Below the pieces are notes generated by a model that saw only the letters and a program-made list of their open reading frames with translations, was not told where the DNA came from and made no database searches. From contig NZ_KZ119600.1 in assembly GCF_002153425.1 (NCBI RefSeq), positions 1,153,714-1,217,713 on the forward strand: 64,000 bases of DNA, in the 5' to 3' direction. Below are positions 4,948 through 58,605 of this stretch, one piece after another. Positions within the stretch are counted from its first letter, which is position 1. Every line of letters starts with the position of its first letter. A program made the translations under genes and the position numbers. Source of the DNA: Litchfieldia alkalitelluris. GTDB lineage: Bacteria; Bacillota; Bacilli; Bacillales; Salisediminibacteriaceae.

Positions 4948-7660
4948 ACGGGCACTATTAACAGTTTATAGTGCCCGAAATGGTGGAGTCATGGTGTTTC
5001 CGGGCACTATCCCAGCTCAATAGTTCCCGAACCCAATTTGTGAAGTGCGCTCCGGGCACTATCACGGCTCAATAGTGCCCGAAATCCTTATGGGAGGTGG
5101 GCTCCGGGCACTATGACAGCTTATTAGTGCCCGAAACCATTTTGAGACCTGGACTTCGGGCACTATCACGGCTCAATAGTGCCCGAAATCCTATTGGGAC
5201 CTGTGCTTCGGGCACTATGACAGCTTATTAGTGCCCGAAAAGAATTTGTGATGTGAGCTTCGGGCACTATCACAGCTCAATAGTGCCCGAACACAATTTG
5301 TGAAGTGCGCTGCGGGCACTATCACGGCTCAATAGTGCCCGAAATCCTTATGGGAGGTGGGCGCCGGGCACTATGACAGCTTATTAGTGCCCGAAAAGAA
5401 TTTGTGATGTGAGCTTCGGGCACTATCACAGCTCAATAGTGCCCGAACACAATTTGTGAAGTGCGCTGCGGGCACTATCACGGCTCAATAGTGCCCGAAA
5501 TCCTTATGGGAGGTGGGCGCCGGGCACTATGACAGCTTATTAGTGCCCGAAAAGAATTTGTGATGTGAGCTTCGGGCACTATCACAGCTCAATAGTGCCC
5601 GAACACAATTTGTGAAGTGCGCTGCGGGCACTATCACGGCTCAATAGTGCCCGAAATCCTTATGGGAGGTGGGCGCCGGGCACTATGACAGCTTATTAGT
5701 GCCCGAAAAGAATTTGTGATGTGAGCTTCGGGCACTATCACAGCTCAATAGTGCCCGAACACAATTTGTGAAGTGCGCTGCGGGCACTATCACGGCTCAA
5801 TAGTGCCCGAAATCCTTATGGGAGGTGGGCGCCGGGCACTATGACAGCTTATTAGTGCCCGAAAAGAATTTGTGATGTGAGCTTCGGGCACTATCACAGC
5901 TCAATAGTGCCCGAACACAATTTGTGAAGTGCGCTGCGGGCACTATCACGGCTCAATAGTGCCCGAAATCCTTATGGGAGGTGGGCGCCGGGCACTATGA
6001 CAGCTTATTAGTGCCCGAAAAGAATTTGTGATGTGAGCTTCGGGCACTATCACAGCTCAATAGTGCCCGAACACAATTTGTGAAGTGCGCTGCGGGCACT
6101 ATCACGGCTCAATAGTGCCCGAAATCCTTATGGGAGGTGGGCGCCGGGCACTATGACAGCTTATTAGTGCCCGAAAAGAATTTGTGATGTGAGCTTCGGG
6201 CACTATCACAGCTCAATAGTGCCCGAACACAATTTGTGAAGTGCGCTGCGGGCACTATCACGGCTCAATAGTGCCCGAAATCCTTATGGGAGGTGGGCGC
6301 CGGGCACTATGACAGCTTATTAGTGCCCGAAAAGAATTTGTGATGTGAGCTTCGGGCACTATCACAGCTCAATAGTGCCCGAACACAATTTGTGAAGTGC
6401 GCTGCGGGCACTATCACGGCTCAATAGTGCCCGAAATCCTTATGGGAGGTGGGCGCCGGGCACTATGACAGCTTATTAGTGCCCGAAAAGAATTTGTGAT
6501 GTGAGCTTCGGGCACTATCACAGCTCAATAGTGCCCGAAACCATATTTGGACCTGCGCTCCGGGCACTATGACAGCTCAATAGTGCCCGAAACCATATTG
6601 GGACTGGTGCTCCGGGCACTATGACAGCTTATTAGTGCCCGAAACCAATTTGTGACGTGAGCTTCGGGCACTATGACAGCTCAATAGTGCCCGAAATCCT
6701 ATTGGGAGGTGGGCTCCGGGCACTATCTCATCTCAATAGTGCCCGAAACCCTGATGGGAGGTGGGCTTCGGGCACTATGATAGCTCAATAGTGCCCGAAA
6801 CCAATTTGTGACGTGAGCTTCGGGCACTATGACAATTCAATGGTGCCCGAAACCAATTTGTGACGTGCGTTCCGGGCACTATCACGGCTCAATAGTGCCC
6901 GAAACCATTTTGAGACCTGGACTTCGGGCACTATCACGGCTCAATAGTGCCCGAAATCCTATTGGGACCTGTGTTTCGGGCACTATGACAGCTTATTAGT
7001 GCCCGAAACCTGAGCTTCGGGCACTATGATAGCTCAATAGTGCCCGAAACCATATTTGGACTGGTGCTCCGGGCACTATCCCATCTCAATAGTGCCCGAA
7101 ACCATATTTGGACTGGTGCTCCGGGCACTATGACAGCTCAATAGTGCCCGAAACCATATTTGGACTGGTGCTCCGGGCACTATCACGGCTCAATAGTGCC
7201 CGAAATCCTATTGGGACCTGTGCTTCGGGCACTATGACAGCTTATTAGTGCCCGAAACCAATTTGTGACGTGAGCTTCGGGCACTATCTCATCTCAATAG
7301 TGCCCGAAACCCTGATGGGAGGTGGGCTTCGGGCACTATGATAGCTCAATAGTGCCCGAAACCATTTTGTGACGTGCGTTCCGGGCACTATCACGGCTCA
7401 ATAGTGCCCGAAACCATTTTGAGACCTGGACTTCGGGCACTATCACGGCTCAATAGTGCCCGAAATCCTATTGGGACCTGTGCTTCGGGCACTATGACAG
7501 CTTATTAGTGCCCGAAACCAATTTGTGACGTGAGCTTCGGGCACTATGACAGCTCAATAGTGCCCGAAACCAATTTGGGACCTGTGCTCCGGGCACTATC
7601 ATCAAGGAATAGTGCCCGAAACGCTGAAGTCGCTGTAGCTCCGGGCACTATCATCAAGCA
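4948..7660. repeat. Array 1: 52 tandem hairpins with 52-bp period
   Basis: Each unit is a near-perfect inverted repeat YTCGGGCACTAT-loop-ATAGTGCCCGAA (loop about 9 bases, commonly CACAGCTCA, CACGGCTCA or GACAGCTTA) followed by a 19-20 base spacer such as TCCTTATGGGAGGTGGGC. Hairpin starts fall at 4948, 5000 and so on every 52 bp to 7641. The only break is one 41-bp unit between 6976 and 7017, where 11 bp of spacer are missing. The last unit has only its left arm. The array lies between two convergent genes, each with its own terminator outside the array. No open frame in it looks coding. Confidence 0.95.
5208..6540. repeat. Higher-order 156-bp repeat block inside array 1
   Basis: Three successive 52-bp units with different spacers form a 156-bp super-unit. 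It recurs with no visible difference: the marker ACACAATTTGTG starts at 5291, 5447, 5603, 5759, 5915, 6071, 6227 and 6383, exactly 156 bp apart. Units outside the block have diverged spacers and loops. This indicates recent amplification of a three-unit segment. Confidence 0.93.
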
Positions 7661-7711
7661 TCAAGAGGTAGCTCCATCTTTTTTATACGAAGCAAGAGCC
7701 AGCATAAAAAA

Positions 7712-7749
7712 GGCCCGTGCAGGTAGGAAGGAAACGATCTGCACGGGCC
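7712..7749 (-). terminator. Intrinsic terminator of the rocB-like gene, right boundary of array 1
   Basis: On the minus strand an 11-bp stem GGCCCGTGCAG / CTGCACGGGCC is followed by TTTTTTATG. It shares its right arm and loop (GGAAACGATCTGCACGGGCC) with the terminator at 4889-4931. Confidence 0.85.
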
Positions 7750-7755
7750 CTATAA

Positions 7756-10470: not shown

Positions 10471-10540
10471 TCCTATGGGAAAGGAATAGAAAAGAAGTCA
10501 CACCCGTTCAAAGCATGACCCCTTTTTTGCAACGATATAA

Positions 10541-12244: not shown

Positions 12245-13201
12245 ATGACTTATGTATTACTACTTATAGGCTTTGGTTTACTGATTAAGGGTGCAGATTA
12301 TTTTGTGTTGGGATCGTCAAAAATAGCGAGTTTATTGAACATCTCTCCTCTTATTGTGGGGCTTACCATTGTGGCATTCGGAACAGGGTCTCCAGAAGCA
12401 ACGGTTAGTATCATTGCTGCAATTGAAGGGAATTCTGAGGTGACTATCGGAAATATCGTAGGGAGCAATATTATCAATACGGCCCTTGTCATTGGTCTGA
12501 CAGCATTTATTTCTCCTTTAGTTGTGCAGAGTCAGACCCTTCGTAAAGAAATTCCGTTTACATTGCTCGCTAGTGTTGCCCTACTTGTTTTAATCAATGA
12601 TATGCAGTTTCAGTTAACAGATGTAAATGTGATTACACGGTCTGATGGGATTATCCTGCTCATGTTTTTTTCAATCTTTATGTACTATATTTTTGAGATA
12701 GCTCGAAATAGTCGTGATAAATCATTGGAAGTTAAGGTGGAAACAAGTCGTAAGGAGTGGGGGAAGAATATTCTCGTTACTGTCGGTGGACTTGCTGCCA
12801 TTATTTTAGGTGGGTATTTTGTAGTAGAGAGCAGTACAAGTATTGCACTTAACTTTGGAATGAGTGAAACACTGGTCGGTCTAACGATCGTTGCGATCGG
12901 TTCCTCCTTGCCAGAGCTAATTACTTCCGTTACAGCTGCTTTGAAAAAACAAAGTGAAATAGCTCTTGGGAACATTGTTGGTAGTAACATTTTTAATATC
13001 CTTTTTGTACTTGGAGTGTCTTCCTTAATCACGCCACTTCCAGTAAACAATATCATTTTTGTTGATGTTATCTTCATGATTGTCTTGACGGTTGCACTAC
13101 TTATTTTCTCTAAAACGCAGTGTAATGTTGGTAAGTATGAAGGTCTAACCCTCGTAGTGGCTTATATTTTATACTTTGTGTATATCATTATTAGAAATTG
13201 A
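12245..13201 (+). CDS. Calcium/sodium antiporter, CaCA family (YrbG-like)
   Basis: A 318-residue protein with ten predicted membrane helices in two inverted halves. The two alpha-repeats that form the ion path are clear: AFGTGSPEATVS plus GNIVGSNIINTALVIGL near residues 45-85, and AIGSSLPELITSV plus GNIVGSNIFNILFVLG near 217-255. The second repeat keeps the acidic residue in SLPELI; the first has SPEA. A charged loop lies near residues 155-170. Expected role: Na+- or H+-coupled calcium export. The upstream site is weak (GGCTGGTGAT). It is not obviously part of an operon. Confidence 0.88.
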   Translation: MTYVLLLIGFGLLIKGADYFVLGSSKIASLLNISPLIVGLTIVAFGTGSPEATVSIIAAIEGNSEVTIGNIVGSNIINTALVIGLTAFISPLVVQSQTLRKEIPFTLLASVALLVLINDMQFQLTDVNVITRSDGIILLMFFSIFMYYIFEIARNSRDKSLEVKVETSRKEWGKNILVTVGGLAAIILGGYFVVESSTSIALNFGMSETLVGLTIVAIGSSLPELITSVTAALKKQSEIALGNIVGSNIFNILFVLGVSSLITPLPVNNIIFVDVIFMIVLTVALLIFSKTQCNVGKYEGLTLVVAYILYFVYIIIRN

Positions 13202-13396
13202 TCAGACTTTTCCCTTGGGCAATCCGCTCGGAGGAATGAGGAAATCATCAACACCAGATGGGTTGATATAATAAGGGGAGAAACTTCCCTTATTTAAGAA
13301 ATGGAACCAAAAATAGTGAAAATAGAAGGAAAAATTCCTGCTAATTTCTAAATAAACAAGATAATTAGATGTCTGTTTGTTCATAAAGGGAAAAAC

Positions 13397-15338
13397 GAGA
13401 CTGTCGATTTATTGTAGTTTATTTCACTTCTATCCCTTATTTCACAAACTTCTTGGCTTTTATTGAGTTTTTTCACAAAGTTTCACTATTTTAATGCTTT
13501 CTGCCCTTTTTAAGGCCTTCGATATTGTCCTAATTTACCTATTTTACCTAATTTGGGCAGACGGGGGCCTTTATCCGATTTTCGCATTTTTTATAACGGT
13601 AAAAAGGCTTTATGGGTTCAGCTAATTTCTTCACCATTATTTTCAAGTTGATAACCATTGCCGTCAATTTAGATGTTATCCTTAATGATTCTCTCCCTCT
13701 TGTTCTTGGTTTCCTGAGTCCATGATGGTTGGCTGCTTCATTATTCGTTCTTTCCACATCGTACCGATCCCTTAATGCATCTTTTCCAACTTCAGTTAAA
13801 TTATAGGATTTTCCTTGTTCCATTATTTCATAGTAATCACTGATAAAAACGGTACGACCTTTTTCATTGGTTGTACATTGTTCAAATAGTGGACAAACTT
13901 GACAAGTTTTCGCTTCGAATTTGAATTGATTCCCTTGATTTACGTTATTTCGCACTTTCTTAGAAGTCGAATACCCTTGAGGACAGATGACCTCATCCAA
14001 ATTGGCATCATAAACAAACCAATCGCTTTCTAATAACCCCGTTGGATTTTTATATTTTTGTATAGGAGCTGTCATTAAAATTTTCATTCCTTGTATTTTC
14101 TGACGATTTTCACCTGTGCCATAGGCCGTATCACCTATGAGCTGTTTCGGTGCAATTCCGTAACTACCTATCATTTCTTTCACCATTGGACCAAGACGCT
14201 CTCCGTCCCACTCATTGCCTGGAATGGGTTCAATATTCAAGACTAATCCGTTCTCCCTCGACTCTAAGACTTGGATTTTATCTCCGGTAAACTTCAAGGA
14301 TTTCGATTTATATCCACTCCGAATTTCTGGATCATAGGCACTTCGAATTCGATCTTTTGGTTTTTCTTTTTTTGATAATTCTTGGTACTGGGGTTGTCCC
14401 TGTTCGGCCCCTTCGTGCTTATCCTGATCAATTGATTTAGTGTTTTCCTGTAAAATTTGATAGAGAATGGCTTGAAGTTCCAAACAACGAAGTTGTTGTT
14501 TTGATTTCTTCCATGTCCAGAATATAGGTTTTACTTTTTCATTTTCTAGCCAATGTAACAGGCTATAGGCTTCCACCACCAGGCGACTAAATAATACCAA
14601 TCGTCGCTTTTCAGGTATTTGATCCGAGAGTGGCTTCATAAAGCTTTTGAGTGCACAATCCTTTTGAAGATAGGTATACAGCTTTGGATATGTACGTTCG
14701 ATGTGATGAATAATTTGAAGGATTCCTTGTTGGATTAAGCGATACGACCCTACTTTGGCAATGTTAGCATACGTATGAAAGGAATCAATAAGCCAACGAT
14801 CATCTTCTTTCCCCCACAGCCCTTTGTCTAAAGCTTGGGAAAGAATGTGGTGGTGACACGCATCAAATAGGGCAGAACCCATGCGATCTCGATCGAGCCC
14901 TAAGGTACTATGGTCGAAACCGTTAAAAGCAACGGGCACTCCCAAAAAACGTTTTATATGTAGATGATAAAGAATGGCCACTTCCATTTCACGATCAGAG
15001 TAATTGTGATAGCGTTGAGCAAAATGAATCTTTAATTTAAGAGAAGGAGCATAAGGACGTTGTCCTTTAGAGGAATACAAGGATGCACAGAGTTCATCTG
15101 CAAAGGAAAAGTCAATCACTTGTTCTACTCGGCTCCAGAAAGGATGGGAAGGGACTGAAGAGAAAACTTCATAATCTGCGAAAGACAACTGACCAAATGT
15201 TTTATATTGAATATGAGCCATCACGATCACTCCATATATAAGATTTGTCTTAATTTTACCTTAGATATGGAGGAAAGTGATAAGTTAATGAAAAAAGTAT
15301 GTGAAATAGGGGTTTATTATGAGTTAATCGACAGTCTC
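13397..15338. mobile_element. Complete IS1182-type insertion sequence
   Basis: The transposase gene is bounded by terminal inverted repeats GAGACTGTCGATT at 13397 and AATCGACAGTCTC ending at 15338, followed by further similarity (TTTATTTCAC / GTGAAATA). The sequence AAAAC directly precedes the left end and directly follows the right end, a possible 5-bp target duplication. The A-rich context makes a chance match possible. The element is 1,942 bp with an intact gene, so it may be active or recently active. Confidence 0.82.
13548..15221 (-). CDS. IS1182-family DDE transposase
   Basis: A 557-residue transposase. The N-terminal domain starts near FSFADELCASLYSSKGQRPY and contains LKIHFAQRYHNYSDREME, typical of the DUF772 region of IS1182/IS5-like enzymes. 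The catalytic core includes IGDTAYGTGENRQ near residue 365 and the C-terminal RYDVERTNNEAANHHGLRK with the expected Glu. Between them lies a cysteine cluster, CPQGYS and CQVCPLFEQC, characteristic of IS1182 members. The start is ATG 15221 with GGAG nine bases upstream. No frameshift is visible. Confidence 0.92.
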   Translation of the reverse strand: MAHIQYKTFGQLSFADYEVFSSVPSHPFWSRVEQVIDFSFADELCASLYSSKGQRPYAPSLKLKIHFAQRYHNYSDREMEVAILYHLHIKRFLGVPVAFNGFDHSTLGLDRDRMGSALFDACHHHILSQALDKGLWGKEDDRWLIDSFHTYANIAKVGSYRLIQQGILQIIHHIERTYPKLYTYLQKDCALKSFMKPLSDQIPEKRRLVLFSRLVVEAYSLLHWLENEKVKPIFWTWKKSKQQLRCLELQAILYQILQENTKSIDQDKHEGAEQGQPQYQELSKKEKPKDRIRSAYDPEIRSGYKSKSLKFTGDKIQVLESRENGLVLNIEPIPGNEWDGERLGPMVKEMIGSYGIAPKQLIGDTAYGTGENRQKIQGMKILMTAPIQKYKNPTGLLESDWFVYDANLDEVICPQGYSTSKKVRNNVNQGNQFKFEAKTCQVCPLFEQCTTNEKGRTVFISDYYEIMEQGKSYNLTEVGKDALRDRYDVERTNNEAANHHGLRKPRTRGRESLRITSKLTAMVINLKIMVKKLAEPIKPFYRYKKCENRIKAPVCPN

Positions 15339-17477: not shown

Positions 17478-17519
17478 ATTGAGGTCAGTACCGAATAATT
17501 GTACACAAAATATGTATGA

Positions 17520-17605
17520 ATTACTCTCCTGTCCTTTTGCCTGAGATTGTGAATCCTTCGGCGCCACATGACGTGAACTCTCCAGAAGTTGCTCCTGTTA
17601 TAGTT
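17520..17605 (-). promoter_or_regulatory. Glycine riboswitch aptamer
   Basis: On the minus strand the sequence contains the class signatures in order: TCTGGAGAG, then GGCGCCGAAGG, then ATCTCAGGCAAAAGGACAG. These match the conserved core of the glycine (gcvT-type) aptamer. One aptamer is visible; I see no clear second one. The downstream terminator at 17448 supplies the expression platform for the ACT/UPF0210 operon. Confidence 0.88.
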
Positions 17606-17778: not shown

Positions 17779-18290
17779 ATGGGGCCTCGAATCTGTCGGG
17801 GTTGGGAGTTTAGGTTGTGTTATGTTGGAATGCGGCCTGAACTCGCTGGTGGAGGGGAACTCAGTCCGCATTATGCAGGAATGCGGCCTGAACTCACTGG
17901 TGGAGGGAAACTCAGTCCGCATTATGCAGGAATGCGGCCTGAACTCGCTGGTGGAGGGGAACTCAGTCCGCATTATGCAGGAATGCGGCCTGAACTCGCT
18001 GGTGGAGGGAAACTCAGTCCGCATTATGAAGGAATGCGGCCTGAACTCACTGGTAGGGGGAAACTCAGTCCGCATTATGAAGGAATGCGGCCTGAACTCA
18101 CTGGTGGAGGGAAACTCAGTCCGCATTATGAAGGAATGCGGCCTGAAATCGCTGAGGGAAGGGAACTTAGTCCGCATTTTGCAGGAATGCGGCCTGAACT
18201 CGCTGGTGGAGGGAAACTCAGTCCGCATTCTGCAGAAATGCGGCCTGAAGTAGCTGGTGGAGGGAAACTCAGTCCGCACTCTGCATTATC
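17779..18290. repeat. Array 6: ten tandem hairpin units with 51-bp period
   Basis: Marker ATGCGGCCTGAA recurs every 51 bp (17830, 17881, 17932, 17983, 18034, 18085, 18136, 18187, 18238), preceded by one decayed unit at 17779. CAGTCCGCATT-loop-AATGCGGCCTG gives an imperfect stem around a 7-base loop. Because 51 is a multiple of three, several reading frames stay open on both strands and look like a 17-residue repeat protein; no frame has supporting context. It lies upstream of the glycine riboswitch operon and of the small zinc-ribbon gene. Confidence 0.9.
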
Positions 18291-23208: not shown

Positions 23209-23499
23209 TCAATTCACCCTTTTTCACGGAAATCAGACTTTCACTTTTACCTATATTAACATAAAGAGACTCTATTTTTCTTTTTTAAATGCTTTTCTTG
23301 AGAGGTGTGTGTAAAACGTTAAATGGCATGATTTTATAAGGGGAAAATCTCCGTGGCTTGTTTGCACCTCCGAAGGAAACCCGTTATCTCTTTTGGGTTA
23401 GTTGAAACCATATGGTAATTAATGACTTTCGTTATTTGAATGTATTGCATAAGTTAGAAGTAAGTGTGTTTATATAGAGAGATAAAGGTGGGCATACCA

Positions 23500-24129
23500 T
23501 TGTCAGATCAATTATTAGACCTCACAGGTAACTGGATAGAATCGATTGGAGCGACAATCGCAGCTGTTGGCGAAACACAGCAATTATATAGTCAAAAAGT
23601 TGAGGGCTTTAAGCTTGGTGTAGTTGGAAATAGTGTCCAAGGGGTAGGAAATGCCTTCCAAGCGATTGCAGAAACAGATGATGGGTATGTAGAGTTAGGT
23701 AACTGGCTACAGGCAGCAGGGACGTCAAGTAATTCCATTGCTGAATATCGCATGCTTTATGATCTAGGTAACAAATTTGATAACAATCTAATGGAAATAA
23801 ACGGAGATGTTCTCCAAGCAATTGGAGCATTTTATGCTTCCATAGGGAGAATAGAGCAAAATCCTAAATTAGTATACGGAAATTTACTTCAATCATTAGG
23901 CGCAATTGTAGAAGCTATTGGGGTAATACACACAATTAATTCAGATGAAGTAACAGGACAGAAAATGGAGACTGTTGGTGGGTGGCTCCAATCAATTGGT
24001 ACTATGTATCAAGCAATCGGTGCTACTAGATTGTATTTAAATGGCATGAGCCCTGATGGAAATAATAGTGCGAGTGAAGATGGGGTGGGTACAGATGAAA
24101 ACGAACAAGAAACTGCCGTGGACACCTAG
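23500..24129 (+). CDS. Gly-rich helical repeat protein, first of three paralogues (DUF6944-like)
   Basis: A 209-residue protein of degenerate repeats with pattern G-N-x-[LIV]-[QE]-[AS]-[IL]-G-x(5)-[AS]-[IV]-G: GNWIESIGATIAAVGE, GNSVQGVGNAFQAIAE, GNWLQAAGTSSNSIAE, GDVLQAIGAFYASIGR, GNLLQSLGAIVEAIGV, GGWLQSIGTMYQAIGA. The spaced glycines suggest closely packed amphipathic helices. An acidic tail follows. I recall NCBI naming similar proteins DUF6944 family repetitive protein; no function is known. I chose TTG 23500 because AAAGGTGGG precedes it and the paralogues also start close to the first repeat. Two homologues follow. Confidence 0.75.
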   Translation: MSDQLLDLTGNWIESIGATIAAVGETQQLYSQKVEGFKLGVVGNSVQGVGNAFQAIAETDDGYVELGNWLQAAGTSSNSIAEYRMLYDLGNKFDNNLMEINGDVLQAIGAFYASIGRIEQNPKLVYGNLLQSLGAIVEAIGVIHTINSDEVTGQKMETVGGWLQSIGTMYQAIGATRLYLNGMSPDGNNSASEDGVGTDENEQETAVDT

Positions 24130-24212
24130 GTAATGACAAATAACTCAATTGACTATTAACTTTAGGATTATACTAATAATATATTTTTTTCAAACAAAAG
24201 GTGGACGATCAA

Positions 24213-24791
24213 ATGTCTAACCATTTATATACTATCAGTAATTGGATTGAGGCAATTGGTGCCAATCTGGCCGCCTTGGGTGTAAGTATTGAGATTAGAG
24301 ATAGCGTAGATGGAAAAAGAATACGCGTTATTGGCGATGGTATACAAGGGGTGGGGAACTTTCTAATTGCAGAGACCACCCCTGCAGATGGTCTTTCAAT
24401 ATTGGGTAACAGACTACAGGGGATAGCTTCTTCTGGGAATGCAGTGCTTGCATATAGGGAGATATATGTAGATGAAAAAGTGAACGATCAGCTGGAGATC
24501 ATAAGTGATTGCGTTCAAGTAATTGGCTCCTACTTAAGTGCGATTGCAAGAAGAGAGGATAATCCTCCAAAGGCAATAGGTAATACAATTCAAGCCCTTG
24601 GTGCTCTTATTGAAGCTGCTGGTGTGTTACACATATTAAAAGATGATGTTGAAAAAGGGGATGAATTAAGGAGTGCAGGAAAATGGATTCAAGGATTTGG
24701 TACGATCATTCAAGCAATTTCTGTAACTCCTGGTTTAAGGGAACTCCTAAACCAAGGGGAAGACAATGACTTGGAAGTGAGAGAGAGTTAG
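24213..24791 (+). CDS. Gly-rich helical repeat protein, second paralogue
   Basis: A 192-residue protein aligned with the genes on both sides: SNWIEAIGANLAALGV, GDGIQGVGNFLIAETT, GNRLQGIASSGNAVLA, SDCVQVIGSYLSAIAR, GNTIQALGALIEAAGV, GKWIQGFGTIIQAISV. The order and spacing of repeats are conserved, but sequence identity to its neighbours is low, so the duplication is old. The ATG at 24213 is preceded by AAAAGGTGG, the same type of site as gene 1. No signal peptide is present; there is an acidic C-terminal tail. Confidence 0.75.
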   Translation: MSNHLYTISNWIEAIGANLAALGVSIEIRDSVDGKRIRVIGDGIQGVGNFLIAETTPADGLSILGNRLQGIASSGNAVLAYREIYVDEKVNDQLEIISDCVQVIGSYLSAIARREDNPPKAIGNTIQALGALIEAAGVLHILKDDVEKGDELRSAGKWIQGFGTIIQAISVTPGLRELLNQGEDNDLEVRES

Positions 24792-24933
24792 TTATTTTTT
24801 TTGCAAAAATTGATATGAAGCCATCGATTATGGCTAGTTTAATATACAATCAAAAACTAAGGTTATGAATATAAGTAAATGAAGGTGGATTCAATTCATC
24901 AATTCATGTTTAGGTAGATAGAAGGTGAAGGAG

Positions 24934-25563
24934 ATGGCAACGGATTCACGGGACGTCATAGGTAACTGGTTAGGTGCGATTGGAACTACCATTGGTGCGG
25001 TTGGACAGACAAAAGATTTGTTTGGAAGACATATTGTTGGCCAGCATTTGTGGATTGCTGGTAAAGGGACACAAGGGGTAGGTGCTGCTATCCAAGCTGT
25101 GGCAGAGGATGAAAATGTGTTAGCAGAGTTAGGTAACTGGCTCATATCAGCTGGTTCGTCTACCGTTTCAGCAGTCGGTGTTAAGGATCTACCAAATGCC
25201 TATGAGAAGGAAGCTAAGAAGCGATTTGGGATAAAACATGATAATGAACCTAAAAAGCAAGATGAAGTAGATAATAAAAAATTAATTGTGATTGCGAATG
25301 CGCTGCAAGCAAAAGGTGCTTTTATCGTTGCTTCACAACGGGATCATCCTAAGCGTAAAGTAGGAGGTTTCATACAGTCTTATGGGGCCTTCATTGAAGC
25401 ATTAGGGACATTAACTGAGATATCTTCTGATGAAAAAACCGCACAGTATTTAGCAGTATTAGGTGCGTGGCTACAGGCAGCCGGTATATCCTTGCAAGCT
25501 GTAGGAACAACGGAGCAATTTATTGAAGATAATGCTGAAGGGGAAGATACTGATATTGCCTAA
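24934..25563 (+). CDS. Gly-rich helical repeat protein, third paralogue
   Basis: A 209-residue member of the same family: GNWLGAIGTTIGAVGQ, GKGTQGVGAAIQAVAE, GNWLISAGSSTVSAVG, ANALQAKGAFIVASQR, GGFIQSYGAFIEALGT, GAWLQAAGISLQAVGT. It differs by a charged, lysine-rich insertion of about 25 residues in the middle (near residues 90-115). The ATG at 24934 has GAAGGTGAAGG upstream. It ends in an acidic tail like the other two. A composite repeat element begins 70 bases downstream. Confidence 0.75.
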   Translation: MATDSRDVIGNWLGAIGTTIGAVGQTKDLFGRHIVGQHLWIAGKGTQGVGAAIQAVAEDENVLAELGNWLISAGSSTVSAVGVKDLPNAYEKEAKKRFGIKHDNEPKKQDEVDNKKLIVIANALQAKGAFIVASQRDHPKRKVGGFIQSYGAFIEALGTLTEISSDEKTAQYLAVLGAWLQAAGISLQAVGTTEQFIEDNAEGEDTDIA

Positions 25564-26896: not shown

Positions 26897-27035
26897 GGAC
26901 AGTTTATCAATTTGAAGCTTGCTTAGTGTCTTTGAGAGTGAGTGTCATGGACAGTTTAGCAATTAAAAATAGGAAAACTGTCTTTGAAGGCTTGTTTGAA
27001 GGACAGATTTCTAATTAAAACTAGGAAAACTGTCC
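26897..27035. repeat. Array 7: three GGACAGTTT hairpins at 52-bp spacing
   Basis: GGACAG starts at 26897, 26949 and 27001, exactly 52 bp apart. Units two and three carry GGACAG(T/A)TT, an A-rich loop (CTAATTAAAACTAGG type) and AAAACTGTCY, giving a 9-10 bp stem. The first unit has lost most of its right arm. This is the shortest and most decayed array and uses a stem unlike the others. The rest of the 26702-27207 gap is AT-rich promoter-like DNA. Confidence 0.75.
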
Positions 27036-41029: not shown

Positions 41030-41070
41030 TGTGATTTAATTTCCCTTTATGGGGTGTGGCGTCTAGCTCC
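41030..41070. repeat. Chimeric junction unit at the left end of array 2
   Basis: GATTTAATTTCCCTTTATGG is the left half of the TTTCCC-family unit seen in array 5. It runs without a break into CTCCGGGCACTA, the first hairpin of array 2. The distance from CCC to YCGGG is 26 bp, as inside array 5 units. The same junction occurs at 57706-57745. Confidence 0.75.
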
Positions 41071-43160
41071 GGGCACTACCACCCAAGAATAGTGCCCGAA
41101 ACACACGAATCGATCTAGCTCCGGGCACTATCAACGAGAAATAGTGCCCGAAGCGCTGGAGTCGAGTTTGCTCCGGGCACTATCAACGAGAAATAGTGCC
41201 CGAAGCCCCTGAATCGAGCTCGCTTCGGGCACTATCAACAAAGAATAGTTCCCGAAGCACTTGAATCGAGCTTGCTTCGGGCACTATCACCCAAGAATAG
41301 TGCCCGAAGCGCCCGAGTCGAGCCTGCTTCGGGCACTATCAACCAAGAATAGTGCCCGAAGCGCTGGAGTCGATCTAGCTCCGGGCACTATCAACAAGAA
41401 ATAGTGCCCGAAGCACCTGAATCGATCTAGCTTCGGGCACTATCATCAAAGAATAGTGCCCGAAGCGCCGGAGTCGATCTAGCTCCGGGCACTATCAACA
41501 AGAAATAGTGCCCGAAGCACCTGAATCGATCTAGCTTCGGGCACTATCAACAGGAAATAGTGCCCGAAGCGCTGGAACCGATCTAGCTTCGGGCACTATC
41601 AACAAGAAATAGTGCCCGAAGCGCCGGAGTCGATCTAGCTCCGGGCACTATCAACGCAGAATAGTGCCCGAAGCGCTGGAGTCGATCTAGCTTCGGGCAC
41701 TATCACCCAAGATTAGGGCCCGAAGCCTCCAAACCGAGCTCGCTTCGGGCACTATAAACGAAGAATAGTGCCCGAAGCGCCCGAGTCGATCTTGCTCCGG
41801 GCACTAACACCCAAGAATAGTGCCCGAAGCGGGGAAGTCGATCTAGCTCCGGGCACTATCACCCAAGATTAGTGCCCGAAGCCTCCAAACCGAGCTCGCT
41901 TCGGGCACTATAAACGAAGAATAGTGCCCGAAGCGCCCGAGTCGATCTTGCTCCGGGCACTAACAACTAGGAATAGTGCCCGAAGCGCTGGAACCGATCT
42001 AGCTCCGGGCACTAACAACCAAGAATAGTGCCCGAAGCGCTGGAATCGATCTAGCTCCGGGCACTAACAACCAGGATTAGTGCCCGAAGCGGGGAAGTCG
42101 ATCTAGCTTCGGGCACTATCTACCAAGAATAGTGCCCGAAGCGCTGGAACCATTCTTGCTTCGGGCACTATCACCCAAGATTAGTGCCCGAAGCCTCCAA
42201 ACCGAGCTCGCTTCGGGCACTATAAACGAAGAATAGTGCCCGAAGCGCCCGAGTCGATCTTGCTCCGGGCACTAACACCCAAGAATAGTGCCCGAAGCGG
42301 GGAAGTCGATCTAGCTCCGGGCACTAACAACCAAGAATAGTGCCCGAAGCGCGGGAATCGATCTAGCTCCGGGCACTAACAACCAAGAATAGTGCCCGAA
42401 GCGCGGGAATCGATCTAGCTCCGGGCACTAACAACCAAGAATAGTGCCCGAAGCGCGGGAATCGATCTAGCTCCGGGCACTAACAACCAAGAATAGTGCC
42501 CGAAGCGCGGGAATCGATCTAGCTCCGGGCACTAACAACCAAGAATAGTGCCCGAAGCGCGGGAATCGATCTAGCTCCGGGCACTAACAACCAAGAATAG
42601 TGCCCGAAGCGCGGGAATCGATCTAGCTCCGGGCACTAACAACCAAGAATAGTGCCCGAAGCGCGGGAATCGATCTAGCTCCGGGCACTAACAACCAAGA
42701 ATAGTGCCCGAAGCGCGGGAATCGATCTAGCTCCGGGCACTAACAACCAAGAATAGTGCCCGAAGCGCGGGAATCGATCTAGCTCCGGGCACTAACAACC
42801 AAGAATAGTGCCCGAAGCGCGGGAATCGATCTAGCTCCGGGCACTAACAACCAAGAATAGTGCCCGAAGCGCGGGAATCGATCTAGCTCCGGGCACTAAC
42901 AACCAAGAATAGTGCCCGAAGCGCGGGAATCGATCTAGCTCCGGGCACTAACAACCAAGAATAGTGCCCGAAGCGCGGGAATCGATCTAGCTCCGGGCAC
43001 TAACAACCAAGAATAGTGCCCGAAGCGCGGGAATCGATCTAGCTCCGGGCACTAACAACCAAGAATAGTGCCCGAAGCGCGGGAATCGATCTAGCTCCGG
43101 GCACTAACAACCAAGAATAGTGCCCGAAGCGCCGGAACCGATCTAGCTCCGGGCACTATC
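41069..43160. repeat. Array 2: 40 tandem hairpins with exact 52-bp period
   Basis: Hairpin CYCGGGCACTAT (or ...ACTAA) - loop CAACCAAGA or variants - ATAGTGCCCGAAG, then a spacer such as GCGCGGGAATCGATCTAG. The box YCGGG starts at 41069 and recurs every 52 bp to 43149, with no net indel over 2,080 bp. The last copy has only its left arm. In many units the left arm has ACTAAC instead of ACTATC, weakening the stem by a pair. Spacers contain CGATCTAGCT or CGAGCTCGCT. The array lies between the SDR gene and ywrD. Confidence 0.95.
42351..43130. repeat. Fifteen identical 52-bp monomers in array 2
   Basis: The spacer GCGGGAATCGATCTAG starts at 42351 and recurs at 42403, 42455 and so on to 43079, each followed by the same hairpin. 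I see no base differences between these units. The remainder of array 2 is variable and includes a longer recurring block (at about 41690, 41860 and 42170). Confidence 0.93.
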
Positions 43161-43220
43161 ACCGGTGCTGCACTAACGGCATTAGTGATTGGTTTCTTGA
43201 AAAAGCCAGTGACCAAGTAA
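43161..43220 (+). pseudogene. Possible 3' remnant of a membrane-protein gene at the array edge
   Basis: Directly after the last half-hairpin, one frame reads TGAALTALVIGFLKKPVTK and stops at 43220, followed at once by a strong terminator. A hydrophobic helix plus a short basic tail looks like the C-terminus of a multi-helix membrane protein. No start is possible upstream because the array fills the sequence. It may be what is left of a gene displaced or deleted when the array grew; a chance open frame of this length is also possible. Confidence 0.4.
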
Positions 43221-51731: not shown

Positions 51732-51764
51732 GCTGTTCTAACGTTTGTGTTTAGTGGCGTGGAA

Positions 51765-52702: not shown

Positions 52703-52739
52703 TACCCCTTTTTCCGATTCGGAAGAAGGGGTATTTTTT
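52703..52739 (+). terminator. Intrinsic terminator of sspE
   Basis: TACCCCTTTTTCCG and CGGAAGAAGGGGTA form a 14-bp stem (T-G pair included) around ATT, followed by TTTTTT. Confidence 0.9.
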
Positions 52740-52755
52740 AGTTTGTCGAGCGTCT

Positions 52756-53000
52756 TCGGGCACTATTCCTTGATGTTAGTGCCCGGAGCAACCTTGAGAC
52801 GAGCGCTTCGGGTACTATCCTGTGATGATAGTGCCCGGAGAAACCTTGATGCGAGCGCTTCGGGCACTATTCCGTGATGATAGTGCCCGGAGAAACCTTG
52901 ATGCGAGCGCTTCGGGCACTATTCCGTGATGATAGTGCCCGGAGCACCCTTGATGCGAGCGCTTCGGGTACTATCCCGTGATGATAGTGCCCGGAGTACC
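52756..53000. repeat. Array 3: five hairpins with 52-bp period
   Basis: TCGGG(C/T)ACTATTCCGTGATGATAGTGCCCGGA hairpins start at 52756, 52808, 52860, 52912 and 52964. The stem is the same as in arrays 1, 2 and 4; the loop (TCCGTGATG) and the spacer (GAAACCTTGATGCGAGCG) are private to this array. In two copies the left arm reads GGGTACTAT. Confidence 0.92.
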
Positions 53001-53049
53001 CTTGAGGCGGGTGGCGGTTTGCTTTCTTTGGTCAATTCTGATTGGAAAT

Positions 53050-54195
53050 TGTGTTTAATTTCCCTTTACGAAAGCAGACGCATTGCTTCGGTAAAATAAA
53101 TCAAGTTTAATTTCCCTTTACAAAGGCATGCGCATTGCTACGGGTAAATAAACCGCATTTAATTTCCCTTTACGAAGGCATGCGCATTGCTACGGGTAAA
53201 TAAATCAAGTTTATTTTCCCTTTACGAAGGGAGGCGCAATGCTTCGGGTAAATAAACCGCATTTAATTTCCCTTTACGAGGTCAGGCATAGTGCTTCCGG
53301 TAAATAAATCAAGTTTAATTTCCCTTTACGAGGTCAGGCACATTGCTTCGGGTAAATAAATCGCGTTTAATTTCCCTTTCCGAGGTTAGGCATAGTGCTT
53401 CGGTAAAATAAATCAAGTTTAATTTCCCTTTACAAAGGCATGCGCATTGCTACGGGTAAATAAACCGCATTTAATTTCCCTTTACGAAGGCATGCGCATT
53501 GCTACGGGTAAATAAATCAAGTTTATTTTCCCTTTACGAAGGGAGGCGCAATGCTTCGGGTAAATAAACCGTATTTAATTTCCCTTTGCAAGGTCAGGCA
53601 TAGTACTTCGGGTAAATAAATCGCGTTTAATTTCCCTTTCCGAGGTTAGGCATAGTGCTTCGGTAAAATAAATCAAGTTTAATTTCCCTTTACAGAGGCA
53701 TGCGCATTGCTACGGGTAAATAAATCAAGTTTATTTTCCCTTTACGAAGGGAGGCGCAATGCTTCGGGTAAATAAACCGTATTTAATTTCCCTTTGCAAG
53801 GTCAGGCATAGTACTTCGGGTAAATAAATCGCGTTTAATTTCCCTTTACGGTGTCAGGCACATTGCTTCGGGATAATAAATCGCGTTTAATTTCCCTTTC
53901 CGAGGTTAGGCATAGTGCTTCGGTAAAATAAATCAAGTTTAATTTCCCTTTACGAGTTCATGCGCATTGCTACGGGTAAATAAACCGCATTTAATTTCCC
54001 TTTACGAAGGCATGCGCAATGCTACGGGTAAATAAATCAAGTTTATTTTCCCTTTACGAAAGCAGGCGCACCGCTTCGGGTAAATAAATCAAGTTTAATT
54101 TCCCTTTACGAAAGCAGACGCATCGCTTCGGGTAAATAAATCAAATTTAATTTCCCTTTACAAAGCCAGGCGCACCCCTTCGATCAAATAAACAA
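53050..54195. repeat. Array 5: 22 units of a TTTCCC/GGGTAAA element with 52-bp period
   Basis: AATTTCCC (or TTTTTCCC) starts at 53057, 53109 and so on every 52 bp to 54149, 21 exact periods with no net indel. Each unit reads TTTAATTTCCCTTTACGA, a middle such as AGGCATGCGCATTGCT, then (T/A)CGGGTAAATAAA. TTTATTTTCCC and GGGTAAATAAA can pair with one mismatch, giving a weaker hairpin with a 26-base offset between boxes. It follows array 3 directly and fills the gap before the gene at 54427. Confidence 0.92.
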
Positions 54196-54426: not shown

Positions 54427-54900
54427 TTGTTCAATTGGGGGAACCGCAAGAAACCTAAGGGGGACGCAAAAGGAAAGTCGTCAGAGAAAGAAAAAAAGAT
54501 CATCAATGCGTCTATTGACGAAGTGAGACAAGCAGTAAATGCTTACGCTTCTTCCATGAAAAAAGGGATATCACTAAGAAGTGTGATACAGGAAGATCAT
54601 AAAATTGACTATGATATGATCTACTCTTATTTAGGGGGCATACCTGATAAGCAGTTTTACATGTCAAGGGAGACATTTGAAATTTTTGAAGACCCGCAAT
54701 ATCCCAAGTATATTGATCTTTGTCAAATTGCCTGTGACCAATACTATCTGGAAAAAAACGAAGAGCCAGTTACGCCTGGTGATCCGTATAGGAAGTTAAA
54801 TTATTTGAAGCTTAAAGATTATTTAAAGGAAAAGCCACCATTTCAGCTTTATTTGCACCCACGGGATAAAATGGTGACACATCGATCTCCAAAAGAATAA
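54427..54900 (+). CDS. DUF3939-like uncharacterised protein
   Basis: A 157-residue soluble protein. The N-terminus is very basic ([18 protein letters not shown]); the remainder is alpha-beta with [37 protein letters not shown] and [15 protein letters not shown] associate this with the Bacillus DUF3939 family without certainty. The start is TTG 54427 with AGGAGGG nine bases upstream. It stands 19 bases before ntdP on the same strand and is probably cotranscribed. Confidence 0.7.
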
Positions 54901-54919
54901 GAGAGAAAGGAGCAAAACT

Positions 54920-55447
54920 GTGATTTTTCCCAAGACTGGCAGTAATATTTTAGTACAAAGCTATAAGCATAATGGACAGCTTCATCGAGTCTGGGAAGAG
55001 ACAATCATTCTCAAAGGTACGTCCCATGAGGTGATTGGGGGAAACGATCGAATTATGGTGCAGGAATCAGATGGGCGACAATGGCGGACGAGGGAACCTG
55101 CTATCTGCTATTTCACGGCACACCATTGGTTTAATGCTATCGGTATGATCCGCAATGACGGAATTTACTATTACTGTAATTTAGGTACCCCATTTACATA
55201 CGATGAAGAAGCATTGAAATACATTGATTACGACTTGGACATTAAAGTTTTTCCAGATATGACGTACAAGCTGTTAGATGAAGATGAATTTGCATTACAT
55301 AAAAAGCAAATGAACTATCCTGACGAAGTGGAAGTCATTCTGCGCAGAAGCGTTGATGAGCTAGTATCTTGGATTGGTCAACGGAAAGGGCCATTCGAAC
55401 CTGGTTTTATCGAATATTGGTATGAACGTTTTTTACACTATCGATAA
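54920..55447 (+). CDS. ntdP: Nucleoside tri-/diphosphate phosphatase, DUF402 family (YgaC)
   Basis: A 175-residue protein that matches YgaC/UPF0374: [34 protein letters not shown], and [20 protein letters not shown] with [18 protein letters not shown], the acidic metal-binding face of DUF402 enzymes. The C-terminus is [18 protein letters not shown]. The start is GTG 54920 with AAGGAGC upstream. It precedes the ABC transporter gene ygaD, as in B. subtilis. Confidence 0.9.
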
Positions 55448-55483
55448 AAGTAGAGTGGACAAGGCATGATAGATGGTTATATG

Positions 55484-55523
55484 TTCGGACCGGGATCTAA
55501 TAACTAAGTAACTGAGGTCCGAA
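55484..55523. other. Short hairpin without T run after ntdP
   Basis: TTCGGACC and GGTCCGAA form an 8-bp perfect stem around a 24-base loop with TAACTAAGTAAC. It is not followed by T residues. Confidence 0.4.
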
Positions 55524-55585
55524 GCGTGCCAGTCATTAAAGTTTTACCAAAACATAAGAATAATTTAATATAGGAAGAGGAGAGT

Positions 55586-55614
55586 GCGGTTTTAATGAAA
55601 ACCGTCTTTTCTTT
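55586..55614 (+). terminator. Intrinsic terminator before ygaD
   Basis: CGGTTTT-AATG-AAAACCG followed by TCTTTTCTTTT. It separates the ntdP unit from ygaD; the remainder of the 55448-55758 gap is leader DNA. Confidence 0.8.
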
Positions 55615-55758
55615 TGGGGAAAAATAAGGTTGCGAGACATGAAACAGATGATCATCAAGCTTTATTTTTCTCGGAAAAAAGCAGGGGTGAGAGTAAGTTC
55701 AGATCCCCCAACTCAGTGATCTATCACATGGATTGAGAATGTAGAAGGTGGTTGAAAG

Positions 55759-57501
55759 ATGGATAGTATTAAGCGGTACATGACATACATAAAGCCGTAT
55801 TGGAAAGAAATAACAGTGACAGTACTCATCGGGATGCTAAAATTCGGTATTCCGTTATTAATTCCATTGATTTTGAAATACGTCATCGATGACATTATCG
55901 GTGCGACAGGATTAACGAACGACGAGCGATTAACGCAATTATATTGGCTCATGGGTATTGTACTTGTCGTATTTATTTTCCTGCGACCGCCAGTGGAATA
56001 TTACCGACAATATTTCGCACAGTGGACTGGAAGCAAAATCTTGTACGATATAAGGGAACAACTTTTTTCCCACTTGCAAAAACTTAGCTTAAAGTTTTAT
56101 TCCAACAGGAAGTCTGGAGAAATCATTTCAAGGGTCGTTCACGATGTGGAGCAAACGAAAAACTTCATCATCACAGGAATGATGAATATTTGGCTAGATA
56201 TGTTTACCATCGTTGTGGCTATCGTCATCATGTTAACGATGGACGTGTGGCTCACGATAGTAGCCATTGCATTATTACCTTTCTACGGATTTGCCATTAA
56301 GTTTTTCTACAGCAGGCTTCGTGATCTTACTCGGAAACGTTCGCAAGCCCTAGCAGATGTCCAAGGCCATTTGCACGAGCGACTTCAGGGAATGAATGTC
56401 ATTCGGAGTTTTGCCTTGGAGGATCACGAGCAGAAGGCATTTAATAAACAGAACGCAAATTTTTTACAAAAAGCATTGGACCATACGCGTTGGAACGCGA
56501 AGACGTTTGCTGTCGTGAACACGGTGACGGACATTGCGCCGATTCTAGTCATTGGTGTCGCTGGATACATGGTGATCCAGATGAACCTCACTGTGGGTAC
56601 GCTCGTGGCATTCACTGCCTATATGGACCGCCTGTACAATCCACTGCGCCGACTTGTTAATTCGTCGACGACTTTGACGCAGTCCATTGCGTCTATGGAC
56701 CGAATGTTTGAGCTAGCTGATGAAAAATATGATATTACTGACAAACCAAATGCAGTTCCATATTCCATGCCGCAGGGAGAAGTCGTGTTTGAAGGTGTAG
56801 GCTTCAGCTATGACAACGATCATTCAATCTTGAAGGACATCAACTTCCGCGCCAACCGTGGCGAGACGATCGCAATCGTTGGAATGAGTGGTGGTGGAAA
56901 AAGCACGATTATGAGCTTGATTCCAAGGTTCTACGATGTTACTTCAGGAAGAATTCTCATTGACGGCAAGGATATTCGCGACTATCAAGTGCGCACCTTG
57001 CGTGATCGCATTGGAATGGTGCTTCAGGACAATATCATTTTCAGCGACTCGGTCCGCTTCAATATTTTGATGGGAAAACCTGATGCGACTGAAGAAGAAG
57101 TCATTGCAGCAGCCAAAGCGGCCAACGCCCATGATTTTATAATGGAGCTTCCAGAGGGCTACGATACGAACATTGGAGAGCGTGGCGTCAAGCTTTCTGG
57201 TGGGCAAAAACAAAGAGTTGCTATTGCACGCGTGTTTTTAAAGAGTCCAGAAATCTTGATTTTTGATGAAGCGACAAGTTCGTTGGACTTAGAAAGCGAG
57301 CATCTCATCCAGCAATCCTTGTTCCGATTAGCGGAAAACCGCACTACCTTCATTGTGGCTCATCGTCTATCAACGATCACCCACGCCGATAAAATTATCG
57401 TCATTGAAGATGGGCTCTTGAAAGAAGTAGGCAACCATGAAGAGTTGATGGAACGGCAAGGAGCTTACTATAACTTGTTCCAAGTGCAGAAGTTGAATTA
57501 G
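55759..57501 (+). CDS. ygaD: ABC transporter, fused membrane and ATPase domains (YgaD)
   Basis: A 580-residue half-transporter of the lipid/drug exporter type that works as a dimer. Six membrane helices occupy residues 1-310 (with coupling-helix region [20 protein letters not shown]-like, here [19 protein letters not shown]). The ATPase domain has Walker [10 protein letters not shown] near 375, the Q-loop [11 protein letters not shown], signature [13 protein letters not shown] near 475, Walker [13 protein letters not shown] near 500 and the H-loop [16 protein letters not shown] precedes the ATG. The substrate is unknown. Gene order ntdP-ygaD is conserved. Confidence 0.93.
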
Positions 57502-57619
57502 AGGTTAGGGAACGGGTTTGAAGTAGTGGTGAATGAAAGCTGGGGAGTAGGACTTGGGTTTAGCGCGGGTGTGTGGTGAGTGGGAAATTGAAATGTGGGA
57601 GTTAAATGGTAGGAGATCT

Positions 57620-57648
57620 AAAAAAAGCTGCAGTTTGCAGCTTTTTTT
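57620..57648 (+). terminator. Intrinsic terminator of ygaD
   Basis: AAAAAAAGCTGCA pairs perfectly with TGCAGCTTTTTTT around a 3-base loop. Confidence 0.9.
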
Positions 57649-57705
57649 AATGGGTAATAGAGCTTTTTCGATTTTAGAACCAATGATTGTTTGTTTCTAA
57701 CTGGG

Positions 57706-57745
57706 GGATTAGTTCCCTTTGCAATGGTCTTGCTGAGGTTTCGGG
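57706..57745. repeat. Chimeric junction unit at the left end of array 4
   Basis: TTAGTTCCCTTTGCAATGGT closely follows the array 5 variant TTAATTTCCCTTTGCAAGGT and then passes into TTTCGGGCACTATG, the first hairpin of array 4. The CCC to TCGGG distance is 26 bp, equal to that at the array 2 junction and inside array 5 units. Confidence 0.72.
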
Positions 57746-58605
57746 CACTATGAACCAGGAATAGTTCCCGAAGGCCTCGTCTCAAGGTTGCTTCGGGCAC
57801 TATGAGCAAGGAATAGTGCCCGAAGCGCTCGTCTCACCGTTACTCCGGGCACTATGAGCAAGGAATAGTGCCCGAAGCCCTCGTCTCAAAGCTGTTCCGG
57901 GCACTATGAACAAGGAATAGTTCCCGAAGCCCTCGTCTTACTGCTGCTCCGGGCACTATGAACAAGGAATAGTGCCCGAAGCGCTCGCATCAAAGTTGCT
58001 CCGGGCACTATCAGCTTGTAATAGTGCCCGAAGCGCTCGTCTCAAGGTTACTCCGGGCACTATTTGTACGGAATAGTGCCCGAAGGCCTCGCATCAAAGT
58101 TGCTCCGGGCACTATGAACAAGGAATAGTGCCCGAAGCGCTCGCCTCAAGGTTGCTCCGGTCACTATCAACACAGAATAGTTCCCGAAGGCCTCGTCTCA
58201 CTGCTGCTCCGGGCACTATGAACAAGGAATAGTGCCCGAAGCGTTCGTCTCACCGTTACTCCGGGCACTATGAACACGGAATAGTGCCCGAAGCGCTCGT
58301 CTCACCGTTGCTCCGGGCACTATGAACAAGGAATAGTGCCCGAAGCGTTCGTCTCACCGTTACTCCGGGCACTATGAACACGGAATAGTGCCTGAAGCGC
58401 TCGTCTCTCCGTTGCTTCGGGCACTATGAGCAAGGAATAGTTCCCGAAGCCCTCGTCTTACTGCTGCTCCGGGCACTATGAACAAGGAATAGTTCCCGAA
58501 GCGCTCGCATCAAAGTTGCTCCGGGCACTAACAACAAGGTATAGTGCCCGGAGCCCTCGCCTCAAGGTTACTCCGGGCACTATCACCAATTTTTAGTTCC
58601 TTATC
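57741..58605. repeat. Array 4: 17 hairpins with exact 52-bp period
   Basis: YCGGGCACTATGAACAAGGAATAGTGCCCGAAG hairpins begin at 57741 and recur every 52 bp to 58573 (16 periods, no indel). Spacers are of the type CGCTCGTCTCACCGTTGCT. The private loop is GAACAAGGA or close variants. Several right arms carry ATAGTTCCCG, a G-to-T change also seen in arrays 1 and 2. The last unit is decayed. It lies between ygaD and the MBL gene. Confidence 0.93.

What the first reader, a model, noticed from the sequence alone, without database searches (positions are those of the whole stretch)
4948..58605. Seven hairpin arrays with unrelated sequences share one 52-bp period
Arrays at 4948, 26897, 41069, 52756, 53050 and 57741 repeat every 52 bp exactly; the one at 17779 repeats every 51 bp. 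The stems are CGGGCACTAT, GGACAGTTT, TTTCCC/GGGTAAA and CCGCATT types, which are not alignable. Sequence has changed between arrays while spacing has not. 52 bp is about five turns of B-DNA (5 x 10.4), so each hairpin would face the same side of the helix. This points to selection or a mechanism that measures length, such as a protein that polymerises on DNA, a copying enzyme with a fixed step, or a chromosome-organising signal. I know of no described family defined by period rather than sequence.
Basis: partly seen in the sequence, partly recalled or inferred. Interest (0 to 1): 0.9.

Follow-up and report, generated by a model that had tools for sequence, protein, structure and literature searches.

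The report
Repeat arrays locked at 52 bases
Between the genes of this Bacillus-type bacterium lie many long DNA repeat arrays whose sequences often have nothing in common but whose repeat length is nearly always 51 to 53 bases, which suggests that something measures the length of the unit and not only its letters.

Summary
In 40 evenly spaced 20-kb stretches of the same genome outside the window, 25 of 29 tandem arrays (period >=30, >=3 copies) have period 51-53; an alignment-free scan shows the same peak. About seven sequence families hold this period, most of them no more alike on average than shuffled units. In the largest family 414 of 423 unit steps are exactly 52, while loop and spacers have diverged to 40-53% identity. 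Two sister species carry 52-bp arrays of different sequence at one orthologous site with flanks 87-91% identical. Arrays of 51-52 bp also occur in Neobacillus and Bacillus contigs and in two genomes of another family. In the main family stem changes are seldom compensated and show no G.U bias, so I favour double-stranded DNA half-sites bound by an oligomerising protein, about five helical turns per unit. That protein was not found. REP-type transposases do not sit beside these arrays. The length constraint is shown; protein, phasing and function are inferred.

The parts
4949..7654 (+). Array A1, family F1 (core GCTYCGGGCACTA-N11-TAGTGCCCGRAGC-N15), 52 bp, 52 hairpins found; 156-bp higher-order repeat of three units; one 41-bp step; ends on a lone left half-site
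17820..18285. Array A2, family F3-like (TCAGTCCGCA..TGCGGCCTGA), 51 bp, 9.1 copies; forms its own cluster
26897..27034 (.). Array A3, weak 52-bp array (2.1 copies by TRF; GGACAGTTT..AAACTGTC), 31 of 52 positions like family F2
41062..43162 (+). Array A4, family F1, 52 bp, 40 hairpins; ends on a lone left half-site; left flank carries TTTAATTTCCCTTTA, as in family F6
52747..53009 (-). Array A5, family F1 in reverse orientation, 52 bp, 5 hairpins; follows a terminator-like hairpin at about 52704-52741 (by eye)
53053..54174 (.). Array A6, family F6 (TTTAATTTCCCTTTAC..GCTTCGGGTAAATAAA), 52 bp, 21.6 copies, next to the F1 array A5
57742..58602 (+). Array A7, family F1, 52 bp, 17 hairpins, the last one degenerate; a right-type half-site lies one step upstream

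Best explanation
The arrays form one class of period-locked bacterial satellite DNA. Each unit holds two inverted half-sites of about 11-15 bp whose centres alternate, in most families, at roughly 21-24 and 28-31 bp, so that a full unit is 51-53 bp, close to five helical turns. In the one family studied in depth, half-site sequence is conserved among the arrays of the genome while loop and spacer sequence is nearly free but of fixed length; half-sites differ between families and species. I propose that each family is bound as double-stranded DNA by a sequence-specific protein that oligomerises along the array. A unit of wrong length would break the oligomer, so length is selected while the unread bases drift. 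Arrays grow and shrink by unequal exchange, and families can take over each other's sites. Shown: the period lock, the length constraint, half-site conservation in F1, different families at one orthologous site. Inferred: the protein, its oligomerisation, the helical reason for 52, and any role in organising or silencing intergenic DNA.
For: Period: 25 of 29 arrays (period >=30, >=3 copies) in 800 kb at 51-53; 61 arrays in about 1.13 Mb (partly chosen for family F1) are 52 x45, 51 x15, 53 x1. Families: mean between-family similarity 20.9-23.5 positions against a shuffled mean of 21.2, except F3/F5 at 28.2; within families 33.6-40.3. Length constraint: in F1 414 of 423 steps are exactly 52 over 27 arrays; the 25 arrays compared have stem identity 0.92, loop 0.395, spacers 0.48 and 0.53; within them 2613 substitutions from consensus in 445 units against 8 length changes in 420 steps, not independent counts. 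DNA-level reading: of 4450 F1 stem pairs 3888 are Watson-Crick, 38 G.T, 43 A.C, 481 other; at the most variable C-G pair, left-arm C to A 56, right-arm G to T 38, both together 2. Site exchange: two sister species, adjacent flanks 90.8% and 87.4% identical, different 52-bp units at the same site (24 of 52; 67 of 1000 shuffles as good); one of them matches another array of the sister at 34 of 52. Other lineages: 51-52 bp arrays in further same-genus genomes, in G033 and G327 of another family of the order, and in Neobacillus/Bacillus contigs.
Against: No binding protein was identified and no gene family recurs beside the arrays in a telling way. No lone F1 hairpin was seen in the own-genome DNA scanned, so there is no ordinary regulatory site to name the protein. 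In F5/F3 mismatches are unequal (A.C 30, G.T 3) and in F7 also (67 to 40), which could hint at a strand preference, although inherited mismatches are counted many times. At the innermost F1 pair T-A 168, A-A 146, T-T 124, A-T 2, a pattern that neither pairing nor independent half-sites explains simply. Rare length changes cluster at +-1 bp, not at whole turns. About seven families in one genome would need several proteins or one of loose specificity. The class is patchy: none in 120 kb each of G009 and G016, none in 120 kb of evenly placed G003 stretches, and in one 20-kb stretch each of 16 further genomes only G033 has one; four more G033 stretches had none.
Confidence: 0.4

Rival explanations
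1. Selfish satellites made by a mobile-element enzyme that measures length: a transposase or recombinase (RAYT/HUH-like or other) recognises the inverted half-sites and copies or inserts units of fixed length; the period is a product of the enzyme's geometry, not of selection on the host.
For: Families sit at many loci and one orthologous site holds different families in two sisters; arrays lie at different places in different species (ggt: 0 of 8 orthologues with such an array within 1.5 kb; upstream of comFA: 0 of 6 further genomes); 16 of 27 F1 arrays are followed, one step on, by a lone left half-site, and 7 of 27 are preceded by a lone right one (chance about 0.006 per test); in the same genus some Y1-transposase genes do sit beside dispersed hairpin arrays of other periods (101, 91).
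Against: Of 20 Y1-transposase loci examined in 5 genomes none has a 51-53 bp array within 2 kb; the 5 of this genome show three stray 7-base matches to the array stems within 2.5 kb and no array. No transposase recurs beside the arrays except an IS3-type pair near some F3, F5 and F6 arrays.
Confidence: 0.3
2. Ordinary descent: all arrays come from one ancestral 52-bp satellite that diverged by concerted evolution; the period is inherited because units of another length recombine poorly with the rest.
For: F6 lies within 1.5 kb of F1 at 7 of 7 F6 loci, though 5 of the 7 lie in stretches fetched because they hold F1, and F6 shares outer half-site letters with F1; of 4 compact junctions measured 3 lie within 3 bp of register and one is 9 off; F3 and F5 share an arm; one array is plainly orthologous in two sister species.
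Against: Most family pairs are at shuffled-level similarity on average, so the sequence would have turned over completely while length drifted by at most 2 bp. Upstream of comFA the units differ wholly with flanks still 87-91% alike.
Confidence: 0.15
3. RNA-level function: arrays are transcribed as strings of hairpins (sponges, 3' ends, processing sites).
For: Arrays lie between called genes and are somewhat over-represented between convergent ones (17 of 55 with both neighbours, against 115 of 645 gene pairs); unequal A.C and G.T mismatches in F5/F3 and F7.
Against: No G.U excess in F1 (38 to 43); orientation relative to co-directional genes 6 same, 3 opposite, 2 not assigned; no Rfam family matched an array of the window; no excess of open frames in the 51-bp arrays (mean 1.27 of 6; 2.20 expected for a single unit, an upper bound), so no sign of a peptide.
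Confidence: 0.1

Closest known systems
REP sequences in BIME arrays with RAYT transposases
   Same: Extragenic, palindromic, dispersed, several families per genome, regularly spaced in alternating orientation, binding sites for proteins (abstract and passages of PMC2817692)
   Different: Here the palindrome is a pair of half-sites, no GTAG/CGTC tag is seen by eye in the F1 consensus (tag: abstract and passages of PMC3733652), no Y1 gene examined lies beside the arrays, and one period is shared by unrelated families
Eukaryotic alpha-satellite and other nucleosome-phased satellites (recalled, from no call)
   Same: Fixed monomer length with fast sequence turnover, higher-order repeats, species-specific families
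   Different: Unit of 52 bp instead of 150-180 bp, no nucleosomes, inverted half-sites in each unit, bacterial host
CRISPR arrays
   Same: Regularly spaced palindromic repeats of constant step
   Different: Loop and spacer are shared within an array, not unique; arrays number dozens in the DNA sampled; no sign of spacer acquisition
LTRR/STRR tandem repeats of cyanobacteria (recalled) and bcr1 of Bacillus cereus (named in a passage of PMC3733652)
   Same: Short intergenic bacterial repeats
   Different: Defined by sequence; not known to me to share one period across unrelated sequences

Membership tests
REP/BIME with RAYT | Repeats regularly spaced in alternating orientation | tested here: met
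   Inverted half-sites alternate along the F1 arrays
REP/BIME with RAYT | RAYT gene flanked by two copies of the repeat | tested here: not met
   0 of 20 Y1 loci with a 51-53 bp array within 2 kb; 5 own-genome Y1 loci show only three stray 7-base stem matches within 2.5 kb
REP/BIME with RAYT | GTAG or CGTC tag next to an individually palindromic 20-40 bp repeat | tested here: not met
   By eye on the F1 consensus of 25 arrays: no such tag, and the 13-bp half-site is not self-complementary; other families were not examined for it
CRISPR | Identical repeats separated by unique spacers | tested here: not met
   Whole units, spacers included, are 0.84-0.96 identical to the array consensus in 25 F1 arrays
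CRISPR | cas genes nearby | not tested
   No cas search was run
Known structured RNA (Rfam) | Match above gathering score | tested here: not met
   The only match in the window is a glycine riboswitch at 17519-17595 (-)
Tandem repeats inside coding genes | Open frame kept through the array | tested here: not met
   52 is not a multiple of 3; 15 arrays of 51 bp have a mean of 1.27 open frames of 6, with 2.20 expected for a single unit from composition
Protein-bound operator-type array | Binding of a protein to the half-sites | not testable with these tools
   Needs pull-down or footprinting

The most novel reading that the evidence does not exclude
A class of bacterial DNA defined by length: many unrelated, species-specific sequence families held at five helical turns per unit by DNA-binding proteins that build a regular filament along intergenic DNA, the bacterial counterpart of phased satellite chromatin, found in several families of Bacilli.
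Probability: 0.3. Interest if true: 0.95.

Novelty: new variant of a known kind. Interest (0 to 1): 0.8.

Why it matters
Bacterial repeats are usually sorted by sequence. A class that keeps its length while its sequence is replaced implies a ruler: either a protein lattice on DNA or an enzyme with a fixed step. About 2% of the evenly sampled chromosome lies in such arrays (15.3 of 800 kb), so binding, transcription and knock-out experiments should be able to test it, and it would bring the question of why satellites keep their period into a tractable organism. Ten searches of the held paper library listed no description that I recognised; that library lacks most subscription papers, and I read passages of two papers only.

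Tried and rejected
RAYT/REP transposase as the maker: rejected as an adjacency claim, kept as a general rival. RNA hairpin function: weakened by equal G.T and A.C counts in F1, not excluded for F5/F3 and F7. Peptide coding: no support. Recurrent neighbour gene: 344 ORFs near arrays were clustered; groups of 3 or more were ABC transporters, response regulators, an IS3-type transposase pair and other common families as I read them (names from sequence, no family search), none convincing. Plasmid and phage homologues of array A7: no match in either collection. Helical phasing from deviant units: uninformative. The F2 part used a wrong gap length and is discarded. One search failed on a file name and was redone. 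Two Neobacillus novalis stretches of 20 kb held no array. In one search four of 20 contigs were too short to inform (239-3664 bases); six of 20 stretches did not exist. Of the 9 stretches found only the 5 from Bacillus-type records were scanned for arrays; the other 4 hold one hairpin each by that listing. Of the 7 of 397 genomes with the looser F1 motif one is the own genome, and of the other 6 only G327 shows an array at the loci fetched. A 51-bp array in G014 and a 54-bp one in G039 look like coding repeats by eye and are not counted. In one search the families were named by motif; clustering at 30 of 52 gave 10 clusters, which I group as about seven; single between-family pairs reach 29, shuffles 27.
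Full report
What was claimed and what is there. All seven arrays are present with the stated periods, the one at 26.9 kb only as 2.1 poor copies. Reading the units shows that four of them (A1, A4, A5, A7) carry one stem, CGGGCACTA..TAGTGCCCG, and that A6 carries related outer letters. The window thus shows about four families. The strong part of the claim, one period for unlike sequences, had to be tested outside the window.

Genome-wide test. I took 40 evenly spaced 20-kb stretches that avoid the window. Tandem Repeats Finder, one row per locus, gives 40 arrays of period >=30, of which 27 have period 51-53; with at least three copies it is 25 of 29, the rest being 36, 74, 128 and 178. An alignment-free autocorrelation finds 36 loci: 16 at lag 51-53, 6 at 102-104 or 153, 4 at lag 20 (block-shuffled sequence gave 4 at lag 20 and nothing else) and 10 scattered. 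Adding the window, five transposase loci and 16 stretches chosen for family F1, 61 arrays of 50-53 bp were catalogued: 45 of 52, 15 of 51, 1 of 53.

How unrelated are the families? Best circular ungapped matches on either strand between consensus units give shuffled-level means between most families (20.9-23.5; shuffled mean 21.2, 99th percentile 25), 33.6-40.3 within families, and 28.2 for F3 against F5, which share GACTGAA. Single between-family pairs reach 29. F6 lies within 1.5 kb of an F1 array at 7 of 7 F6 loci, but 5 of those loci are in stretches fetched because they hold F1. Of the four compact F6/F1 junctions measured, the offsets from register are -1, 0, -9 and +3 bp; a fifth lies over 1 kb away. 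So some families are kin, and some arrays are composites.

Length against sequence. Scanning for the F1 hairpin with up to 4 of 18 mismatches found 27 arrays and no lone hairpin in the own-genome DNA held; 414 of 423 steps are 52, the others 51 (4), 53 (2), 54, 41 and 104. Over the 25 arrays with at least five hairpins, stem identity is 0.92, loop 0.395 (lowest 0.0) and spacers 0.48 and 0.53; the conserved core is GCTYCGGGCACTA-N11-TAGTGCCCGRAGC-N15. Within arrays there are 2613 substitutions from consensus in 445 units but 8 length changes in 420 steps. The counts are not independent, because units duplicate, but length change is clearly held down. Other families: F4 32 of 32 steps at 51 in 3 arrays; F5/F3 66 of 68 at 51 in 12 arrays; F7 83 at 52, 27 at 53 and 1 at 58 in 5 arrays; my F2 motif was wrong and gives nothing.

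DNA or RNA? In F1, single-arm changes are common and double changes rare; G.T and A.C mismatches are equal (38 and 43 of 4450 pairs). That fits half-sites read in double-stranded DNA better than RNA hairpins. F5/F3 (G.T 3, A.C 30) and F7 (40, 67) are unequal, which I cannot explain and which may reflect a few inherited mismatches. F1 orientation against co-directional neighbours is 6 same and 3 opposite, 2 not assigned. No array lay inside a called gene, but the caller drops ORFs that overlap arrays, so this is partly by construction. Array ends: one step beyond the last hairpin 16 of 27 F1 arrays have a left half-site without its partner and 2 have both; one step before the first, 7 have a lone right half-site and 4 have both (chance about 0.006 per test).

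Relatives. The exact F1 motif is absent from 39 relatives; a looser one occurs in 7 of 397 genomes of the order, the own genome included, and of the other six only G327 shows arrays, of 51 bp, at the loci fetched. Arrays of 51-53 bp with other stems were seen in same-genus genomes G002, G003 (only at loci fetched for other reasons), G004, G007 and G008 and in G033 of another family. None of that kind was seen in 120 kb each of G009 and G016, in 15 of 16 other genomes with one 20-kb stretch, or in four more stretches of G033. Contigs of Neobacillus novalis, Bacillus sp. UNC438CL73TsuS30 and a Bacillus MAG carry CGGGCACT arrays of 52 bp.

Orthologous sites. Between genes that I read as degV and comFA (names from sequence, recalled), G002 and G003 have adjacent flanks 90.8% and 87.4% identical and both hold 52-bp arrays, yet the consensus units match at only 24 of 52 (67 of 1000 shuffles do as well). 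The G003 unit matches a different array of G002 at 34 of 52, so the site seems to have changed family. Six further genomes have no such array in about 1.6 kb upstream of comFA. At a second site both species keep the same array, with 4.8 and 9.0 copies. A third G002 array lies in DNA without an orthologous flank in G003. So of three G002 arrays tried, one site shows exchange and one shows plain inheritance. The gene beside A4 (ggt as I read it) has no 51-53 bp array within 1.5 kb in 8 of 8 relatives, and five close orthologues of the peptidase beside A1 have none either.

Mechanism. Length constraint needs a ruler. Half-sites conserved in sequence, free spacers of fixed length and inverted halves point to a DNA-binding protein that contacts its neighbours along the array; 51-53 bp is near five turns, and in most families half-site centres alternate at about 21-24 and 28-31 bp. 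A length-measuring mobile-element enzyme explains dispersal better, but no such gene was found by the arrays: in 20 Y1-transposase loci, arrays next to the gene had periods such as 101, 91, 45 and 42, never 51-53 within 2 kb. Plain descent explains kin families but not the lock across unlike ones.

Known systems. REPs in BIMEs are the nearest relatives in kind (search listing, abstract and passages of PMC2817692; listing and passages of PMC3733652). Two defining features were tested and not met, so I do not file the arrays there. Ten paper searches listed no account of a period-defined class that I recognised.

Verdict. A real, sharp regularity in this genome, present though patchy in other genera, with a shown length constraint and an unproven cause.

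Noticed in passing
L132:8500-9108, L136:10290-10917, L139:10148-11651: Some Y1-transposase genes of same-genus genomes lie beside hairpin arrays of other periods (101, 101 with 86, and 91 bp); the 101-bp kind recurs at other loci of G002 and G003 (L069, L080, L083).
   Followed up: partly
L078:8653-9232 and 13112-13692; L167:551-1010: 201-bp arrays in G016 and G008, close to four times 50 bp.
   Followed up: no
window 23464-25563: Three neighbouring ORFs on the + strand encode similar-looking proteins (NWIEAIGA/GNWLQAAG-like repeats).
   Followed up: no
window 17519-17595 (-): Glycine riboswitch aptamer near array A2.
   Followed up: no
window 13548-15230 (-): Transposase-like ORF of 560 aa, judged from its sequence; no family search was run.
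   Followed up: no
L063:17526-19314 against L047:5734-7062, L060:10667-12268, L063:8510-9300 and 14378-14910: Family F7 (CGAACGCGAA..TTCGCGTG) has one array at 53 bp and four at 52, the only family of the catalogue with two modal lengths.
   Followed up: partly
window about 4900-4945 and 52704-52741; flanks of arrays in L148 and L051: Several arrays begin just after terminator-like hairpins with T runs (by eye), which may mark where arrays settle.
   Followed up: no
L029:18996-19780: 128-bp array, 6.1 copies at 99% matches with a 10-bp inverted stem, an exception to the 51-53 rule.
   Followed up: no
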